From Candidatus Microgenomates bacterium (GTDB taxonomy: Bacteria > Patescibacteriota > Microgenomatia > Levybacterales > UBA12049), in contig JANWKV010000033.1 of NCBI GenBank assembly GCA_025451195.1, forward strand, positions 1 through 53,609: a DNA stretch of 53,609 nt, in the 5' to 3' direction. Position 1 is the stretch's first letter; each line of letters begins with the position of its first letter. Below are positions 406-17,053 of the stretch, piece by piece. Under the pieces are notes generated by a model that saw only the letters and a list, made by a program, of their open reading frames with translations, was not told the origin of the DNA and ran no database searches. Made by a program: the position numbers and the translations under genes.

Positions 406-1431
406 ATGCCTAAAGAGTTATCAGCCTTACCCGTAACACAGCTGTTTAGTGCCGGAGCCGCAATAGCACGAAATAACCGATTTGTGGAAGAAGGTGGTGC
501 TCCTCTTGTTGCCAGACATGCGGTAAACGCTCCTTTCATAGCCTACAGAAAGTTTAAATGGCCGGGTTCTAGGGAGGGAGCAAGCGGAAACGGAATCTTA
601 GCAAACGTGGATGCATATCGGGAAATGAGGGAAAGAGATGGATTTTCTAAGCTTTATACAAATATGGCTTGGGTTAGAAATTTTGTGTTGCAAGGTTCAA
701 CACAACCCGTTTCACTCAGACAAGTAATAGAGATGACATCAATTGGTGAAACTCTTCCTTTATTTTTGCTTAGAGATTCTCAAAGTCCATTTGACCCAGA
801 TAGTAGAATTACAGAAGCTCAACTGCCGGAAACAATGGCTGATATGTATAAATCATTCCGAGGCTTATTTACAGCCTCGATTAATTTGGCAATTGATAGT
901 TATGACTCTCAAACTAAGATACATAATCTCGACGTTCCTTCACCAAGCGCAGAAGAGATTTATAATTTTGTGGACAGAATTAATCCCAAGCTTGTAAATG
1001 CAGGCGGCATTGGATGTCCTGCTCCAAAAGATGTAATTGTGAATGCATTTAATATACTGTTGACAGGAAAAGATACTTTGGGAAATTTATTTTCTGATAG
1101 CACAAGTGATATACCAAATTTATTACAAATGCAGGGAGGGCAAGAAAGAGTAAGAGAGTTTGCAGGAATAATGGTAGACTATGAATTTCTTGTTTCAAGA
1201 TTGAGAAGGATTGGGAATGAAGGACAGCAAAATCTGCAAATAATGGGAATAGACACGAGGGAAATGCCGGTATCAATTTTCTTTACAGCAAGAGCTTTAG
1301 GCGATGAAATTACAGAAGCAGGTCAAATATTATTAGATTTAGGATTAAAACAATTACAGGCAAACACAGTGCTTGGAAGACTTTTTAGGAGAGGATACTC
1401 ACCTGCGGTTTCTCCAGAAGATGTTCTGTAA
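406..1431 (+). CDS. hypothetical protein (341 aa)
   Basis: Long ORF with TATAAT 6 nt upstream of ATG; no family recognised. Confidence 0.75.
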   Translation: MPKELSALPVTQLFSAGAAIARNNRFVEEGGAPLVARHAVNAPFIAYRKFKWPGSREGASGNGILANVDAYREMRERDGFSKLYTNMAWVRNFVLQGSTQPVSLRQVIEMTSIGETLPLFLLRDSQSPFDPDSRITEAQLPETMADMYKSFRGLFTASINLAIDSYDSQTKIHNLDVPSPSAEEIYNFVDRINPKLVNAGGIGCPAPKDVIVNAFNILLTGKDTLGNLFSDSTSDIPNLLQMQGGQERVREFAGIMVDYEFLVSRLRRIGNEGQQNLQIMGIDTREMPVSIFFTARALGDEITEAGQILLDLGLKQLQANTVLGRLFRRGYSPAVSPEDVL

Positions 1432-8985: not shown

Positions 8986-9014
8986 TTGACGAGCTATTAA
9001 ATACCTGATACAAT
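8986..9014 (+). promoter_or_regulatory. sigma70-type promoter of the ilvB operon
   Basis: TTGACG - 17 nt - TACAAT. Confidence 0.75.
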
Positions 9015-9023
9015 TACATAAAG

Positions 9024-9065
9024 ATGAAATCTTTAAATCTCGTTGTCCTTATTGTTGCTCGCTAA
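9024..9065 (+). CDS. ilv leader peptide MKSLNLVVLIVAR
   Basis: ATG...TAA 13 codons, 7 of them Leu/Val/Ile, followed immediately by mutually exclusive hairpins and a terminator. Confidence 0.8.
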   Translation: MKSLNLVVLIVAR

Positions 9066-9116
9066 AGCGGGTTGCAGTTGCATGGACAACTCACACCCGC
9101 GAAAGCGGGTTTTTTT
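9066..9116 (+). promoter_or_regulatory. attenuator: antiterminator arm 9067-9080 / 9087-9100, terminator 9095-9116
   Basis: GCGGGTTGCAGTTG can pair with CAACTCACACCCGC; ACCCGC-GAAA-GCGGGT followed by T7. Confidence 0.8.
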
Positions 9117-9124
9117 GTAGAAAA

Positions 9125-10846
9125 ATGGATAAAAAACAAAAAAACATTCGACAGTCTCAAGGTAAGATAACAGGCAGTCAGGCACTTTTGGAATCTCTTG
9201 TAAGAGAAGGGGTTAGTGTTATTTTTGGATACCCTGGTGGTGCAATAATGCCTGTTTATGATGCTTTGTACAACTATAAAGATAAACTTAGGCATATTCT
9301 TGTAAGGCACGAGCAGGGAGCAGGGCACGCAGCAGAAGGATACGCCCGCGTAACCGGGCGACCGGGGGTTGCACTTGTTACATCCGGTCCTGGTGCAACA
9401 AATTTAGTTACTGCAATTGCAGACGCAATGATAGATTCTGTCCCAATTGTTTGTATAACAGGGCAGGTATCTATGAGCGTTTTGGGCACAGATGCATTCC
9501 AGGAAGTTGACGTAATTGGAGTGACCACTCCAATTACAAAATGGAATTATCAGGTTACAAAAGCTGAAGAAATCCCGGAAGTTATTGCGAAAGCTTTTTA
9601 CATTGCAGGAACCGGTAGACCAGGACCAGTGGTAATTGATATAACCAAAAATGCACAGCAGGATTTAATGGAATTTTATTATCCTAAAAAAGTAGAAATT
9701 ATCGGTTATCAACCAACCACTCAGCCAAATATAAAACAAATAAAGCTTGCCGCAGACTTAATAAACAAGGCAAAAAAGCCTTATATGTTTATTGGTCACG
9801 GAATTCTCATTTCCAATGCCACATCTGAGGTTATGGATTTGGTTGAAAAAACGGGTATGCCTGTTGCATCAACACTCCATGGATTGTCTGCAATTCCCGC
9901 AAACCATCCATTATACGCAGGAATGCTTGGAATGCACGGAAATTACGGGCCAAATATGTTAACGCAAGATGCAGATGTTATTTTGGCAGTTGGAATGCGC
10001 TTTGACGACAGGGTAACAGGAAGGCTTTCAGATTACGCTAAAAAAGCAAAAGTAATCCACATAGATATAGACCCGGCAGAATTAAATAAAAATGTTCAGG
10101 CATTTGTGCCGATAGTTTCTGATGCAAAACCGGCTCTTTCGGCTCTTATAAAATACGTTAATAAAAATACACATACAGCCTGGGTCAATGAATTTAAAAA
10201 AGCTGACAAAAAAGAAGAGGAAAAAGTACATATTCATGAGTTCAAAAACGATAAGGATGGAATAAAAATGGCACAAGTCATAAAAATGCTATCAAATAAA
10301 ACCAAAGGAGACGCAATTATTGTTGCTGATGTTGGGCAGCACCAGATGAAGGCAGCAAGGTACTTCGAATATAAAAATCCACATTCGTATATAACTTCCG
10401 GTGGCGCAGGGACAATGGGATTTGCACTTCCTGCTTCAATGGGTGCAAAAGTTGCAGCGCCTAGAAAAGAGGTTATAGCAATAATTGGAGACGGTAGTTT
10501 CCAAATGACAATTCAGGAATTGGCAACAATTGCACAAGAAGGGCTTCCCGTTAAAGTAATTTTACTCAACAACAACTTTTTAGGAATGGTTAGGCAATGG
10601 CAGGAAATGTTTTACGAGAAACGTTATTCGTTTACAAACCTGAAAAACCCTGATTTTATAGCAGTTACCAAAGGCTTTGGTATAAAAGCAGAAAAAGTTA
10701 TTGATATAAAAGATCTAAGTGCCGCAATGGACCGGATGCTTGATTCTAAAGAAGCATTTTTACTTGAAGTTGAAGTTAAAAAAGAAGAAAATGTTTTTCC
10801 AATGGTGCCAAGTGGGGCAGCGGTTCATGAGATACGGTTGGAATGA
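9125..10846 (+). CDS. ilvB: acetolactate synthase large subunit
   Basis: FGYPGGAIMPVYDALY, RHEQGAGHAAEGYARVTGRPGVALVTSGPGATN, GDGSFQMTIQELATIAQEGLPVKVILLNNNFLGMVRQWQ. Confidence 0.97.
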   Translation: MDKKQKNIRQSQGKITGSQALLESLVREGVSVIFGYPGGAIMPVYDALYNYKDKLRHILVRHEQGAGHAAEGYARVTGRPGVALVTSGPGATNLVTAIADAMIDSVPIVCITGQVSMSVLGTDAFQEVDVIGVTTPITKWNYQVTKAEEIPEVIAKAFYIAGTGRPGPVVIDITKNAQQDLMEFYYPKKVEIIGYQPTTQPNIKQIKLAADLINKAKKPYMFIGHGILISNATSEVMDLVEKTGMPVASTLHGLSAIPANHPLYAGMLGMHGNYGPNMLTQDADVILAVGMRFDDRVTGRLSDYAKKAKVIHIDIDPAELNKNVQAFVPIVSDAKPALSALIKYVNKNTHTAWVNEFKKADKKEEEKVHIHEFKNDKDGIKMAQVIKMLSNKTKGDAIIVADVGQHQMKAARYFEYKNPHSYITSGGAGTMGFALPASMGAKVAAPRKEVIAIIGDGSFQMTIQELATIAQEGLPVKVILLNNNFLGMVRQWQEMFYEKRYSFTNLKNPDFIAVTKGFGIKAEKVIDIKDLSAAMDRMLDSKEAFLLEVEVKKEENVFPMVPSGAAVHEIRLE

Positions 10847-10959: not shown

Positions 10960-12651
10960 ATGGTAACTATTAGAACGTATACAATTATTATTTTTACAGA
11001 AAATAAACCAGGGGTATTAAACAGAATCTCCGATTTATTTTTGCGACGGAAAATCAATATAGAAAGTTTAACTGTTTCTGAAGTGCAAAAAGAAGGCGTT
11101 TCGAGATTTACCGTGGTTGTTAAAGTTGATAAAAACATGATTGAAAAAATTGTTAAGCAGCTTTACAGAATAATTGAAGTTTTGAAAGTCTTTGAAAATA
11201 CAGATAGCGATTTAATCTTTAAAGAAATTGCTTTTTTTAAAGTCGCAACAAAAACCCCGGATCAACGGCACGAGATAGAAGATTTAGCCTATCTTTTTAG
11301 GGCCAGAATAAATTTTGTCGGAAATGATTTTGTGGTTATTGAAAAAACTGGTTCGGAAGAAGAAATTAATTCTTTATATGCACTTTTGCGGCCTTTTAAC
11401 GTGCGGGAGTTTGTGCGTTCCGGAAGGATTGCGGTACTAAAAGAGGAAGCAAGATTTTCCGGTAAGTTTAATCCGACTCCAAAAGAGCCGGCAGACATGA
11501 CTTTAAATATTGATGTTTCAGCAATCAAAAAAATGCAGCTTATGGCATGGGATACAAAGGGCACAATTTCTTTGGCTCAGGGAATTCCATCATTTAATTC
11601 TGCAAAACATATAAGAGACGCTGCAAAAAAGGCAATTGATGAAAATCTGGTAGATAAATATACGGCAGGTAATGGAATTATAGAACTTCGTGAAGCTATT
11701 GTTGAAAAACTTGCTAGGGATAACAAAATGAAAGTAACAACAGACCAGATTATTGTAGCCCACGGCGCAATTGAGGCGTTAATGGCTGTATTTATGGCGC
11801 TTCTTAATCCAAGTGACGAAGTTTTGGTTTTAACGCCTGATTATGCATCACACATTACCCAAACAAGAATTGCACGGCATGGCGGCAGGCCAATTTTTGT
11901 GCCTTTAACAGAAACAGAAAAGGGCTGGGTTTTAGAAGCAGAAAAACTTGAGGCGTCAATTACTCAAAATACAAAAGCAATTCTTATTTGTAATCCCTGC
12001 AATCCGACAGGTAAGGTTTATTCAATAGAAGAATTAAAAGAAGTTGCCAGAATTTCAAATAAATATAATCTTTTTATCATAACAGATGAAATCTACGAAT
12101 ACTTTACGTTTGACGGCAAAAAGCATATAAGTATTGGGAGTTTGCCGGAAGTTAAAGATAGGGTTATCTCTATTTTTGGGATTTCCAAATCATACGCAAT
12201 GACGGGCTGGAGGATAGGTTATATTGTTGCAAATAAAAATCTTATTACTCAAATATTTAAAATTCATGATTCTCTAATAACTTGCCCAACGGCTGTTTCT
12301 CAATACGCTGCAATTGCCGCAATTAAAGGACGGCAAGATATAGTTGAAGAATACAAAAAAGCATTTGAAAAAAGGCGGGGAATTGTTGTGGAAGAGTTAA
12401 GTAAAACGAAAAAGTTGTTTTTGACCAGTAAACCGGAAGGTGCATATTATGCATTCCCGAAATTTGCCAAAGAAGTTGATGATTATGAAATAGCAGTCCG
12501 ACTTATCAGGGAAGCAAAAGTAGCAGTTGTTCCGGGTAGTGCGTTTGGTCTGGGCGGAGAAAACCATATCAGGATTTCATATGGTGGAGATGAGGAAGAA
12601 CTAAGAGAGGGAATGAGAAGAATTGTTAAGTTTGTTGAGAAGAATTGCTAA
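10960..12651 (+). CDS. fusion: acetolactate synthase small subunit (ACT, IlvN/IlvH-like; ~aa 1-165) + class I/II PLP aminotransferase (~aa 180-563)
   Basis: N-term TIIIFTENKPGVLNRISDLFLRRKINIESLTV...; C-term SLAQGIPSF..., CNPCNPTGKVYS, DEIYEYFTFDG, ISKSYAMTGWRIGY in one uninterrupted frame. Confidence 0.93.
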   Translation: MVTIRTYTIIIFTENKPGVLNRISDLFLRRKINIESLTVSEVQKEGVSRFTVVVKVDKNMIEKIVKQLYRIIEVLKVFENTDSDLIFKEIAFFKVATKTPDQRHEIEDLAYLFRARINFVGNDFVVIEKTGSEEEINSLYALLRPFNVREFVRSGRIAVLKEEARFSGKFNPTPKEPADMTLNIDVSAIKKMQLMAWDTKGTISLAQGIPSFNSAKHIRDAAKKAIDENLVDKYTAGNGIIELREAIVEKLARDNKMKVTTDQIIVAHGAIEALMAVFMALLNPSDEVLVLTPDYASHITQTRIARHGGRPIFVPLTETEKGWVLEAEKLEASITQNTKAILICNPCNPTGKVYSIEELKEVARISNKYNLFIITDEIYEYFTFDGKKHISIGSLPEVKDRVISIFGISKSYAMTGWRIGYIVANKNLITQIFKIHDSLITCPTAVSQYAAIAAIKGRQDIVEEYKKAFEKRRGIVVEELSKTKKLFLTSKPEGAYYAFPKFAKEVDDYEIAVRLIREAKVAVVPGSAFGLGGENHIRISYGGDEEELREGMRRIVKFVEKNC

Positions 12652-12687: not shown

Positions 12688-13734
12688 ATGAAAATGAATT
12701 TTGGAGGAGTTGAAGAAACAGTCGTAACTCGTGATGAATTTCCTTTGGAAAAAGCACGCAAAGTTTTAGAAAAAGAAACAATTGCTGTTATTGGATATGG
12801 TGTTCAAGGTCCGGCACAGGCACTTAATATGAGGGATAATGGTTTTAGCGTAATTGTTGGGCAACGAAAGGGTGGAAAAACATATCAAAAAGCAATTGAC
12901 GATGGATGGGTTGAAGGAGAAACACTTTTTGATATAGAAGAAGCAGTTAAGAAAGGGACAATTATTTGTTATTTACTTTCCGATGCTGCGCAAATTGAGC
13001 TATGGCCAACTGTTAAAAAGCATTTAACAAAAGGAAAGACAATTTATTTCTCACATGGTTTTGCTGTTACTTTTAAGGACAAAACAGGAATTATCCCTCC
13101 AAAAGACGTAGATGTTATTTTGGTTGCCCCAAAAGGGTCAGGCCGCACGGTCAGAAAACATTTCCTTGAAGGCCGTGGAATTAATTCCAGTTTTGCTGTT
13201 TTTCAAGACGCAACAGGTAAGGCGCAGGAAAAAGTCAGGGCAATGGGAGTAGGCGTTGGCTCAGGATTTTTATTCCCGACAACATTCCAAAAAGAAGTAT
13301 ATTCCGATTTAACAGGAGAAAGAGGAGTTTTGCTTGGTGCAATTGCAGGGCTTATGGAAGCACAGTACAATTTACTTCGCAAACACGGTCATAACCCGTC
13401 TGAGGCATTTAATGAAACAGTTGAAGAAGCAACACAAAGTTTAATCCCACTTATTGGGGAAAACGGAATGGACTGGATGTTTGCATGTTGTTCAACGACA
13501 GCGCAAAGGGGAGCACTCGACTGGAAACCGAAATTCAAAAAAGCAGTAGAGCCGGTGTTTGACGAACTTTACAAAAGCGTAGAGTCAGGAAACGAAGCGG
13601 AAATAACAATTAAGGCAAATAGTAAACCCGACTACAGGGAAGGCCTTAAAAAAGAATTAGACGCGATGAAAAATAGTGAAATGTGGAAAACCGGAGCAAA
13701 GGTTCGTGAACTCAGACCGGAAAATCAAAAATAG
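12688..13734 (+). CDS. ilvC: ketol-acid reductoisomerase
   Basis: IAVIGYGVQGPAQALNMRDNGFSVIVGQRKG, VAPKGSGRTVRKHFLEGRGINSSFAVFQD, SDLTGERGVLLGAIAG. Confidence 0.96.
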   Translation: MKMNFGGVEETVVTRDEFPLEKARKVLEKETIAVIGYGVQGPAQALNMRDNGFSVIVGQRKGGKTYQKAIDDGWVEGETLFDIEEAVKKGTIICYLLSDAAQIELWPTVKKHLTKGKTIYFSHGFAVTFKDKTGIIPPKDVDVILVAPKGSGRTVRKHFLEGRGINSSFAVFQDATGKAQEKVRAMGVGVGSGFLFPTTFQKEVYSDLTGERGVLLGAIAGLMEAQYNLLRKHGHNPSEAFNETVEEATQSLIPLIGENGMDWMFACCSTTAQRGALDWKPKFKKAVEPVFDELYKSVESGNEAEITIKANSKPDYREGLKKELDAMKNSEMWKTGAKVRELRPENQK

Positions 13735-13929: not shown

Positions 13930-15243
13930 ATGAAACAAAAAATAACCCAACGGCTGACTCAGGGTAAACAAAATATGAAAATAACTGTAAAAATGATTGA
14001 AGAAGCAAGAGAGCGGCTTGGAAAAGTTGTTGCAAAAACTCCTTTACAATATTCAAAACGCCTTTCGGAGAGATATGGTGCAAAAATATATTTAAAACGG
14101 GAAGACCTACAGGAAGTCCGTTCTTTCAAAATCCGCGGAGCCTACAATAAAATGTCCACCTTAACTCCTGAAGAAAAAAAACGCGGAGTTGTTTGTGCTT
14201 CTGCCGGAAACCATGCACAGGGAGTTGCTCTTTCATGTTCGCTCCTCAAAATTAATGGAGTTATATTTATGCCAACAATCACCCCTTTGCAAAAAATAGA
14301 CAGAGTAAAACATTTTGGAGATGGTTTTGTAACGATTAAACTTGTCGGGACAACTTACGATGATGCAAGCATGGCATCAAAAGAATATTGTCACGAAAAA
14401 GATATGGTTTATGTTCATCCATTCAACGATCCTCTAACTGTTGCAGGTCAAGGGACAATCGGTAAAGAAATATACGAAGATATAGATGGGGATTTAGATG
14501 TTGTTGTTTGTGCAATTGGTGGTGGAGGATTAATTTCCGGGGTTTCTTCATACTTAAAACAAAAATCCGCTCCGCCAGCTGGCGGACGACGGACCAAAGT
14601 AAAAGTTTATGGAGCCGAGCCAATGGGTAGTCCTTCCATGGTTGAGTCTTTGAAAAAAGGAAAACCTGTAAAAATAGAAAAAATAGAGACATTTGTAGAC
14701 GGAGCTGCTGTACAAATGCCAGGCGAGTTAACAGTTGAAATTTGCAAACAAAATGTGGAAGATATTTTTTTGGTGCCGGAGGGAAAGATTTGTACAACAA
14801 TGGTTGAGCTTTACCAAAACGAAGGAATAATTGCAGAGCCGGCAGGAGCATTAAGTGTTTCTGCGCTTCACTTTCTTAAAGACAAAATAAAAGGGAAAAC
14901 TGTTGTTTGCGTATTGAGTGGAGGGAATAATGATATTTTAAGATATCCCGAAGTTATGGAAAGAAGCTTGGTCTGGCAGGGGAGAAAACATTATTTTCTG
15001 GTTGAATTTGCACAAAAGCCCGGTCAACTTCGTAATTTTTTAGATAAAGCAATAGGACCAACTGATGATATTGTAAGATTTGAATATGTAAAGAGGACCA
15101 GTAAAGAAAAAGGGGCTGCGCTGGTTGGCATAGAACTTCAGAGTAAAGAAAATTTACAACCGCTTTTGGAAAAAATGAAAGAAATAGAATTAAAATTCAG
15201 AATACTTACACCTGATGATTTGTTGTACCAGTATTTGATATAA
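13930..15243 (+). CDS. ilvA: threonine ammonia-lyase (start possibly 13975, MKITVKMIEEARERLG)
   Basis: LKREDLQEVRSFKIRGAYNKM, CASAGNHAQGVALSC, GGGGLISGVSSYLKQ, LSGGNNDI; C-terminal regulatory domain. Confidence 0.95.
   Translation: MKQKITQRLTQGKQNMKITVKMIEEARERLGKVVAKTPLQYSKRLSERYGAKIYLKREDLQEVRSFKIRGAYNKMSTLTPEEKKRGVVCASAGNHAQGVALSCSLLKINGVIFMPTITPLQKIDRVKHFGDGFVTIKLVGTTYDDASMASKEYCHEKDMVYVHPFNDPLTVAGQGTIGKEIYEDIDGDLDVVVCAIGGGGLISGVSSYLKQKSAPPAGGRRTKVKVYGAEPMGSPSMVESLKKGKPVKIEKIETFVDGAAVQMPGELTVEICKQNVEDIFLVPEGKICTTMVELYQNEGIIAEPAGALSVSALHFLKDKIKGKTVVCVLSGGNNDILRYPEVMERSLVWQGRKHYFLVEFAQKPGQLRNFLDKAIGPTDDIVRFEYVKRTSKEKGAALVGIELQSKENLQPLLEKMKEIELKFRILTPDDLLYQYLI
14571..14586. repeat. perfect palindrome TCCGCCAGCTGGCGGA inside ilvA
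   Basis: Self-complementary 16-mer, extended by outer TCCG...CGGA arms. Confidence 0.9.
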
Positions 15244-15271: not shown

Positions 15272-17053
15272 ATGAAGAATAACAAAAATTGTGACTGCGA
15301 ACATTGTGCATGTGATGATTCCGGAGAATCATCAGACACTTCTTTGCTCCGTCAAAAAAGCGCAACTCTCACAGGTAATCAGGAAGATAAAAAAAATTGG
15401 GCAAAAAGGGCTCCTGCCAGGGCGATGATGCGGGGCGTTGGTTTTAAAGACGAAGATTTTAAAAAGCCTCTTGTAACTCTTGCCGTCCCTTATACAAACA
15501 TAACTCCTTGTAATGGCCATATAAGAGAATTGGGTGATATCTGTTTTGAGGAAATAGAAAAAAACGGGGGAAAACCCATTATATTTGGTACACCTGTTAT
15601 TTCCGACGGGGAAACAATGGGAACAGAAGGAATGAAATATTCTTTGGTCTCCCGAGAGCTTATTGCGGATTGTATTGAAGCAATGCATGAAGGATACATG
15701 GCCGATGGAATTTTAACGCTTAGCGGTTGTGATAAAACAATTCCTGCCGCACTTATTCCTTTGGCGCGAAATAATAGCATTGGTCTTACTTTATACGGAG
15801 GAACAATTTTGCCTGGAAAACTGCACGGAAAAGATTTAACTGTCGTAAGTATTTTTGAAGCGGTTGGCCAGCATGCCGCGGGTAAAATTGATGACAAAGA
15901 GTTGTACGATGTTGAATGTAATAGTTGTCCTGGTAATGGAAGTTGTGGGGGAATGTATACCGCAAACACAATGGCACTGGCAATTGAAGCAATGGGAATG
16001 AGTATTCCAGGGAGTTCGAGTAACCCCGCGGTTGATACTCAAAATAAAGTATCCGCCTACAAAAGATTGGATTGCATAGATTCTGTTAAGGCTTTGTTTA
16101 ATTTATTAAAAAGAGGAATCCATGCTCGGGATATTATGACCCGCGAAGCATTCGAGAATGCAATCACAATTATTATGGCTTTAAACGGATCAACAAACGC
16201 GATACTGCATTTACTTTCTCTTGCGCATGAAGCCAAGGTTAAATTATCTATAGATGATTTTGAAAGAATTGCCGCTAGAGTTCCGTTAATTGGAGATTTT
16301 AAACCATCTGGTAAATATGTTATGGAGGATTTATTTAAAATAGGAGGCAGTAAAATGGTTTTCAAACTTTTACTGGACGCTAGACTTTTGCATGGAGATT
16401 GTTTGACAGTAACCGGCAAAACATTGGCAGAAAACCTAAAAGACGCTCCGAGTTTTCCTAAAAACCAGGATATTATTTATACGCTTGAAAAACCCTTAGC
16501 ACCTCCTGAACATCATTTGATAATAATGAGGGGAAATTTGGCGCCAGATGGGGCGGTTATGAAACTATCCGGTAAAGAAATAGAAGTGCATAATGGCAAC
16601 GCACGCGTTTTTGAATCGGAAGAAAATGCACTTGACGCAATCTTGCAAGGAAAAATTAATAAAGGAGATGTTATTATCATCCGTTACGAAGGGCCAAAGG
16701 GAGGCCCTGGTATGCGGGAAATGTTGTCACCATCTTCTGCTTTAATGGGGGCAGGTCTTGGTAAAGATGTTGCGCTTATTACAGACGGCAGGTTTAGCGG
16801 CGGAACACACGGATTTATGATTGGGCATGTGACACCTGAGGCACAAGACGGAGGGGTTATAGCAGTTGTAGAAGAAGGAGATAAGATTGAAATCAGCAGG
16901 TCAAAACGTACAATAAATGTTTTACTCTCCGAAGAAGAAATTGCAAACAGGCTTTCCAAATGGAAGGCGCCAGAACCAAGGTATAAAAGGGGAATATTGG
17001 CAAAATACGCAAAACTTGTAAGCAGTGCATCTAAAGGTGCGGTAACTTCATAA
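15272..17053 (+). CDS. ilvD: dihydroxy-acid dehydratase with Cys-rich N-terminal extension
   Basis: CNGHIRELGD, GTPVISDGETMGTEGMKYSLVSRELIADCIE, SGCDKTIPAALIPLAR, CPGNGSCGGMYTANTMA. Confidence 0.96.
   Translation: MKNNKNCDCEHCACDDSGESSDTSLLRQKSATLTGNQEDKKNWAKRAPARAMMRGVGFKDEDFKKPLVTLAVPYTNITPCNGHIRELGDICFEEIEKNGGKPIIFGTPVISDGETMGTEGMKYSLVSRELIADCIEAMHEGYMADGILTLSGCDKTIPAALIPLARNNSIGLTLYGGTILPGKLHGKDLTVVSIFEAVGQHAAGKIDDKELYDVECNSCPGNGSCGGMYTANTMALAIEAMGMSIPGSSSNPAVDTQNKVSAYKRLDCIDSVKALFNLLKRGIHARDIMTREAFENAITIIMALNGSTNAILHLLSLAHEAKVKLSIDDFERIAARVPLIGDFKPSGKYVMEDLFKIGGSKMVFKLLLDARLLHGDCLTVTGKTLAENLKDAPSFPKNQDIIYTLEKPLAPPEHHLIIMRGNLAPDGAVMKLSGKEIEVHNGNARVFESEENALDAILQGKINKGDVIIIRYEGPKGGPGMREMLSPSSALMGAGLGKDVALITDGRFSGGTHGFMIGHVTPEAQDGGVIAVVEEGDKIEISRSKRTINVLLSEEEIANRLSKWKAPEPRYKRGILAKYAKLVSSASKGAVTS

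What the first reader, a model, noticed from the sequence alone, without database searches (positions are those of the whole stretch)
8986..9116. Leader-peptide attenuator of the ilvB operon (MKSLNLVVLIVAR) on a near-leaderless transcript
Seen: TTGACG-17-TACAAT promoter; an ATG only 9 nt after the -10; a 13-codon ORF with L,L,V,V,L,I,V; its TAA abuts GCGGGTTGCAGTTG, which can pair with CAACTCACACCCGC; that arm overlaps the terminator ACCCGC-GAAA-GCGGGT-T7; ilvB follows at 9125. Known: this is the logic of enterobacterial ilv/leu attenuators. Inference: stalling at hungry Leu/Val/Ile codons leaves the antiterminator free, while a ribosome at the stop codon masks its 5' arm so the terminator forms. 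Ribosome-mediated attenuation on a leaderless leader ORF in a CPR-like genome seems undescribed.
Basis: partly seen in the sequence, partly recalled or inferred. Interest (0 to 1): 0.85.

Follow-up and report, generated by a model that had tools for sequence, protein, structure and literature searches.

The report
Starvation-sensing switch before ilvB operon
The stretch before this small bacterium's branched-chain amino-acid operon carries a tiny leader gene and three competing RNA hairpins that should let a ribosome starved of leucine, valine or isoleucine switch the operon on; the switch is of a classic kind, but it is conserved across an ultra-small bacterial lineage where we found no report of it.

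Summary
Every relative whose operon head is sequenced has a BCAA-rich mini-ORF, antiterminator and intrinsic terminator. This covers 14/14 ilvB-bearing genomes of the same family and about 42 operons in five families of the class. The switch always precedes the operon's first gene, whether that is ilvB, ilvE, ilvD or an aminotransferase.

Four results point to translation sensing. Control codons favour CTC/GTC, read by G34 isoacceptors. The last control codon lies 13 nt from the antiterminator arm, about a ribosome's leading edge. The three arms covary. The same genome's leuA has a Leu-only leader (MKSLNLGLLLLTV).

Near-leaderless initiation is likely (-10 to start usually 5-13 nt). It has precedents in Corynebacterium ilvBNC and Sinorhizobium trpL. 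Bacteroidota, whose IlvB is closest, also have ilv leaders, so transfer of operon plus switch is plausible. The genome behaves as CPR (1.17 Mb; no L30 in 40/40 relatives). No experiment was possible. Verdict: a real, new member of a known kind.

The parts
8986..9014 (+). sigma-70-type promoter TTGACG-17-TACAAT with TG before the -10
   Evidence: position relative to the leader start conserved in relatives
9020..9022 (+). inferred transcription start (6-8 nt after the -10), giving a 5' UTR of about 2-4 nt with no room for a Shine-Dalgarno
   Evidence: inference from promoter position; not measured
9024..9065 (+). leader ORF (ilvL-like), MKSLNLVVLIVAR, TAA stop at 9063-9065
   Evidence: homologous ORFs in all testable relatives
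9039..9056 (+). control codons CTC GTT GTC CTT ATT GTT (L V V L I V)
   Evidence: codon choice biased to CTC/GTC across 40 leaders; last control codon 13 nt before segment 2
9057..9072 (+). protector hairpin 1:2, GCTCGC-TAAA-GCGGGT, stop codon in the loop
9067..9080 (+). segment 2, 5' arm of the antiterminator (GCGGGTTGCAGTTG)
9087..9100 (+). segment 3, 3' arm of the antiterminator; its last 6 nt are the 5' arm of the terminator
9095..9116 (+). intrinsic terminator 3:4, ACCCGC-GAAA-GCGGGT plus T7
9125..10846 (+). ilvB, acetolactate synthase large subunit (TIGR00118 above cut-off)
10960..12651 (+). ilvN (acetolactate synthase small subunit, ACT) fused to a class I/II aminotransferase
12688..13734 (+). 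ilvC, ketol-acid reductoisomerase
13930..15243 (+). ilvA, threonine ammonia-lyase
15272..17053 (+). ilvD, dihydroxy-acid dehydratase

Best explanation
This is a ribosome-mediated transcription attenuator for the ilvB-ilvN/aminotransferase-ilvC-ilvA-ilvD operon, on a leaderless or nearly leaderless transcript. The ribosome probably starts at or within a few nucleotides of the 5' end (inferred). With ample charged Leu, Val and Ile tRNAs it reaches the stop codon and covers segment 2; after release, segment 1 (the last sense codons) pairs with segment 2. Either way segment 3 is free to form the terminator with segment 4, and transcription stops before ilvB. When a BCAA tRNA is short, the ribosome stalls on CTC GTT GTC CTT ATT GTT. 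Its leading edge then ends just before segment 2, so it blocks segment 1 but leaves segment 2 free; segment 2 pairs with segment 3, the terminator cannot form, and the operon is transcribed. Shown by sequence: all elements, their conservation, arm covariation, codon choice, spacing, and matching specificity in the leuA leader. Inferred: transcription start, translation, stalling, and the starvation response.
For: Conservation: 14/14 ilvB-bearing genomes of the family have the element, and in the class set all operons with a readable head have it, across five families and different first genes. RNA: the antiterminator overlaps the terminator arm in 24/24 type-A leaders, combined p about 2e-20; arms 2, 3 and 4 change together, GCGGG/CCCGC/GCGGG, GGGAG/CUCCC/GGGAG, GGAGA/UCUCC/GGAGA; the protector hairpin has combined p 7e-4. 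Translation: ILV is 48% of leader codons vs 24% in genes; CTC is seen 32 times vs 7.1 expected and GTC 43 vs 16.5 expected from each genome's own long ORF; tRNA-Leu(GAG), Val(GAC) and Ile(GAT) genes are present; codon choice of this sort is predicted by attenuation theory (PMC1183508). Geometry: the distance from the last control codon to segment 2 is 13 nt in nine of ten directly comparable family leaders and 12 in the tenth, including two genomes that place the stop differently. Specificity: leuA leaders are Leu-only, L vs I+V 73:13 against 121:230 in ilv leaders, p=1e-17; the window genome's own is MKSLNLGLLLLTV. trpE of two relatives has Trp leaders.
Against: There are no RNA-seq, ribosome-profiling or expression data. 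With the ribosome placed at V11, the full-length minimum-energy fold still shows the terminator beside a weak segment-2 hairpin (-17.2); the antiterminator wins on energy only when stalling is at L9 (-20.7), so switching at the last codon must rely on the antiterminator forming first. The protector hairpin is weak or absent in G046, G020, G050 and G266. P-values treat related genomes as independent. In G050 and some other-class genomes the -10 to ATG gap is 24-26 nt, so leaderlessness is not universal. The CTC and GTC excess is partly constrained by RNA pairing.
Confidence: 0.93

Rival explanations
1. Constitutive intrinsic terminator after a short untranslated RNA (or the end of a small RNA), with ilvB expressed by read-through and the ORF incidental.
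For: Terminator is strong; promoter-like sites are common by chance here; 2.3% of short ORFs in the window are as ILV-rich.
Against: ILV-rich ORFs are present in all testable relatives, with codon choice biased to specific isoacceptors, constant 13-nt spacing to segment 2 and leuA leaders switching to Leu-only.
Confidence: 0.03
2. A metabolite riboswitch, T-box or protein-bound antiterminator controls the same terminator.
For: ilvB genes elsewhere can be under ppGpp riboswitches (PMC10272879); a T-box-like leader seems to precede trpE in this genome (below gathering score).
Against: No Rfam family matches here or in 20 related loci; only about 50 nt lie between stop codon and end of the U run, leaving little room for an aptamer; the conserved information is codons plus three mutually pairing arms.
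Confidence: 0.02
3. Dual control: besides termination, the terminator's 3' arm doubles as, or hides, the ribosome-binding site of the first gene, so the antiterminated form also opens translation. This would add to the main explanation, not replace it.
For: In several relatives the start codon follows the U run directly and the arm is purine-rich, e.g. G091 GGGAGGATTTTTTTATG and G050 GGGAGATTTTTTTATG.
Against: In the window ilvB starts 8 nt past the U run and the arm is GCGGGT, a poor anti-SD match; in family f8 the first gene is often 25-136 nt away.
Confidence: 0.15
4. The leader encodes a functional hydrophobic small protein and the RNA hairpins are secondary.
For: Peptides are hydrophobic and short; S. 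meliloti peTrpL acts in trans (PMC7298713).
Against: Only the identity of control codons is conserved; synonymous codon choice is under selection; the last residues follow RNA pairing.
Confidence: 0.02

Closest known systems
Corynebacterium glutamicum ilvBNC attenuator / ilvB-II motif (PMC11857589, PMC10272879)
   Same: BCAA leader peptide (MTIIRLVVVTARRLP, 15 aa), transcription start one nucleotide from its start codon, antiterminator and terminator, same operon function
   Different: 292-nt leader region with larger hairpins, Actinobacteria; here about 100 nt, with the stop codon inside a mini-hairpin and the gene right after the U run
Mycobacterium tuberculosis ilvB1 attenuator (PMC13236596)
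   Same: Leader uORF with an LVVI control stretch; terminator vs antiterminator decided by where the ribosome is; stop-codon ribosome masks the antiterminator
   Different: 166-nt leader, not counted as leaderless in the paper; described as a two-structure switch
Sinorhizobium meliloti trpL (PMC7298713)
   Same: Leaderless leader ORF, RNA starting at the ATG, 14 aa
   Different: Trp control codons, Alphaproteobacteria
Enterobacterial trp/ilv/leu attenuators (Rfam Trp_leader, Leu_leader; general knowledge)
   Same: 1:2 protector with stop codon near its loop, 2:3 antiterminator, 3:4 terminator
   Different: Shine-Dalgarno-led leader ORF; no sequence relationship (Rfam 11.9-13.5 bits, far below gathering)
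Bacteroidota ilv operon leaders (seen here)
   Same: ILV-rich leader ORF plus terminator before ilvD/ilvE; closest IlvB relatives (about 60%)
   Different: Usually a longer stretch between promoter-like sequence and ATG and longer spacing to the terminator, no stop-abutting GCGGG arm

Membership tests
Leader-peptide (ribosome-mediated) transcription attenuator | Short translatable ORF rich in codons for the regulated amino acid | tested here: met
   MKSLNLVVLIVAR; 40 leaders average 48% ILV
Leader-peptide (ribosome-mediated) transcription attenuator | Intrinsic terminator between leader ORF and first structural gene | tested here: met
   9095-9116; relatives
Leader-peptide (ribosome-mediated) transcription attenuator | Antiterminator mutually exclusive with the terminator, its 5' arm reachable by the leader ribosome | tested here: met
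   Overlap 6/6 here, 24/24 in relatives; p about 2e-20; arm begins 4 nt after the first base of the stop codon
Leader-peptide (ribosome-mediated) transcription attenuator | Protector (1:2) hairpin | tested here: met
   Window p=0.007, set p=7e-4, weak or absent in four genomes
Leader-peptide (ribosome-mediated) transcription attenuator | Downstream genes make the sensed amino acids | tested here: met
   ilvB, ilvN, ilvC, ilvA, ilvD
Leader-peptide (ribosome-mediated) transcription attenuator | Leader is translated and read-through rises on starvation | not testable with these tools
   needs expression data
Leaderless mRNA | Transcription starts at or within a few nt of the start codon | tested here: inconclusive
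   -10 to ATG gap 9 nt here, 6-13 in most relatives, exactly 6 in G045, G052, G055, G001; no 5'-end data
Rfam cis-regulatory leaders (Leu_leader, Trp_leader, T-box, riboswitches) | Score above the family's gathering threshold | tested here: not met
   No match in the element
CPR / Patescibacteria genome | Small genome lacking ribosomal protein L30 | tested here: met
   1.17 Mb; PF00327 in 0/40 relatives vs 13/14 controls; organism name not available

The most novel reading that the evidence does not exclude
Leaderless or near-leaderless, isoacceptor-tuned leader-peptide attenuation is the standard control of BCAA (and leu, some trp) operons across Patescibacteria. It travels with the operon between Patescibacteria and Bacteroidota as a self-contained regulator that needs only RNA polymerase and ribosome, and it works with the reduced CPR ribosome.
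Probability: 0.55. Interest if true: 0.7.

Novelty: new member of a known kind. Interest (0 to 1): 0.55.

Why it matters
We found no paper linking Patescibacteria/CPR with leader peptides of this sort, attenuators or leaderless control in the held library. Regulation in these mostly uncultured bacteria is little known. A conserved attenuator implies that BCAA synthesis there is live and demand-controlled, that transcription and translation are coupled, and that ribosomes lacking L30 start efficiently on near-leaderless mRNAs. It is a compact, testable regulatory part (about 100 nt) and a clean example of control-codon choice following tRNA isoacceptors. The ilv, leuA and trpE leaders give matched specificity controls within one lineage.

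Tried and rejected
MAFFT alignment A2 slid the arms by 1-2 columns, so an automatic pair count was dropped and arms were compared by each sequence's own fold.

The Bacteroidota loci were expected to be a negative control. They were not: 29 of 37 terminator-before-gene sites have ILV leaders. So 'unique to CPR' is rejected.

Riboswitch and T-box readings of the ilvB leader were rejected.

His leaders: no convincing one found in 21 hisG loci.

Terminator arm as Shine-Dalgarno: kept only as a secondary idea because spacing varies.

Full report
OBSERVATION. They are promoter TTGACG-17-TACAAT (8986-9014), ATG at 9024, MKSLNLVVLIVAR, TAA at 9063-9065, arms 9067-9080 and 9087-9100, terminator 9095-9116 and ilvB at 9125. 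The operon behind it is ilvB, an ilvN-aminotransferase fusion, ilvC, ilvA and ilvD. By itself the promoter is at chance level and an ORF this rich in I/L/V is a 1-in-43 event. A scan for the whole arrangement on both strands of the window returns only this place.

CONSERVATION. Of 73 genomes of the same family, 14 have an IlvB at 60-100% identity, and all 14 have the element. In eleven it precedes ilvB, with peptides such as MKFTKNLVVLIVTR, MKYNVTQLIIVLINR, MSFVNKSIAIIIITH and VKKFAIVTLVLLDLA. In the three where ilvE is first it precedes ilvE (MNKNSLLLVVDLLILVEK, MQNYLLSLFGIVLVEAC, MSLIQELVALQVALLIVVEK). Of 385 class genomes, 38 have IlvB at E<=1e-120. Wherever the operon head is not cut by a contig edge, a leader is found before the first gene, in families f1, f8, f42, f25 and f5. 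For G136 the automatic pick is wrong and the true leader is MTARHGNEINILSIIVLVIGQGKMREA, read; G248's leader is cut at its start by the contig edge. Other classes of the phylum have it in part: G481, G495, G515 and G438 yes; G708, G735 and G701 not seen.

RNA STRUCTURE. In 24 type-A leaders the antiterminator overlaps the terminator's 5' arm in all. Sixteen are individually better than shuffles at p<0.05, and the combined p is about 2e-20, though relatedness makes it optimistic. The three arms change in concert. Across 25 leaders it exceeds a composition-preserving null with combined p 7e-4, but is weak or absent in four. Families f25 and f5 use a longer variant: the control codons lie among CCTCTC/GTCCTT stretches that can pair with GGGAGGC, which in turn can pair with the terminator's GCCTCTC (read from sequence, not tested statistically). 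So the full protector / antiterminator / terminator logic is present.

TRANSLATION SIGNATURES. Control codons are chosen by isoacceptor. CTC makes 32 of 121 Leu codons against 7.1 expected from each genome's own long ORF, and GTC makes 43 of 97 Val codons against 16.5; NNY codons dominate for Leu, Val and Ile (p from 4e-15 to 5e-8). The genome carries tRNA-Leu(GAG), tRNA-Val(GAC) and tRNA-Ile(GAT). Attenuation theory predicts such choice (PMC1183508). The distance from the first base of the last control codon to segment 2 is 13 nt in nine of the ten directly comparable family leaders and 12 in the tenth, even where stop codon and arm are placed differently (G002 vs G000). From general knowledge of ribosome footprints, that is about where the leading edge of a ribosome with this codon in its A site ends. 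In family f8 the distance is more variable, 7-16 nt.

SPECIFICITY. leu operons of the class have Leu-only leaders, e.g. LLLLGE encoded by CTC CTT CTT. The window genome's own leuA has MKSLNLGLLLLTV with its own antiterminator-like arm and hairpin, sharing its first six residues with the ilvB leader. L vs I+V is 73:13 there against 121:230 in ilv leaders, p=1e-17 (the leuA leaders were picked for Leu runs, so this p is optimistic). Two relatives have Trp leaders before trpE.

LEADERLESSNESS. The -10 to start gap is 9 nt here and 6, 6, 6, 6, 7, 7, 9, 10, 12, 13, 13, 17 and 26 nt in the other family members. Inferred 5' UTRs are 0-7 nt in nearly all, too short for a Shine-Dalgarno. This is inference from promoters only.

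IDENTITY OF THE HOST. Size 1.17 Mb, a class of about 1-Mb genomes, and no ribosomal protein L30 in 40 of 40 relatives while 13 of 14 controls have it agree with CPR/Patescibacteria; that CPR lack L30 is general knowledge.

HISTORY. In a quick tree the IlvB of f1, f8, f42 and one f5 genome fall in a fully supported clade together with Bacteroidota IlvB, and Bacteroidota ilv operons also carry ILV leaders, with a longer promoter-to-ATG stretch where a promoter is recognisable. Exchange of operon plus attenuator between the two groups is plausible; the direction is unresolved.

COMPARISON. It works like, and by all sequence features tested is, a leader-peptide attenuator. Leaderless examples are known in Corynebacterium ilvBNC and Sinorhizobium trpL, and an ilvB1 version was shown in M. 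tuberculosis. No report for Patescibacteria/CPR was found in the held open-access library; subscription papers are not covered. Hence: new member of a known kind, in an undescribed and broadly conserved setting.

Noticed in passing
L282 (own genome G000:C36), about 200 nt before leuA: Paralogous leucine-specific attenuator: promoter, MKSLNLGLLLLTV*, CGGTGGG/CCGCC arms, terminator-like hairpin, in front of leuA; Leu-run leaders precede leu operons in 11 class genomes including this one.
   Followed up: yes
L204 1947-2168 (minus), own genome, upstream of trpE: T-box-like leader (AAGGUGGCAACGCG plus terminator) upstream of trpE; Rfam T-box 21 bits, well below gathering (93).
   Followed up: partly
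L192 from 438 and L201 from 1308 on the reverse complement (trpE of G171, G242): Short ORFs with Trp codons (IWQSW; LWRASPFW) followed by a terminator right before trpE: probable Trp attenuators in the same class.
   Followed up: partly
window 10960-12651: Acetolactate synthase small subunit (ACT, ALS_ss_C) fused to a class I/II aminotransferase in one ORF; the ORFs after ilvB in G024 and G025 (L002, L004) look alike in length and start.
   Followed up: partly
L031-L110 (mostly Bacteroidota ilv loci): ILV-rich leader ORFs plus terminators precede ilvD/ilvE operons in 29 of 37 terminator-before-gene sites; no Rfam search was run on them.
   Followed up: partly
L148 3734-3846 (G264): BCAA-rich leader MKNQVLSIVVLITPLTAVSCNN and terminator in front of a pyruvate kinase-like gene, suggesting BCAA-attenuated pyruvate supply.
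   Followed up: no
L114, L113, L112, L010 at first-gene starts: Terminator 3' arm (GGGAGG, GGGAGA) followed by T7 and ATG looks like a Shine-Dalgarno with a U7 spacer: possible extra translational control.
   Followed up: partly
window 406-1431: 341-aa ORF directly before leuB with no Pfam or NCBIfam match.
   Followed up: no
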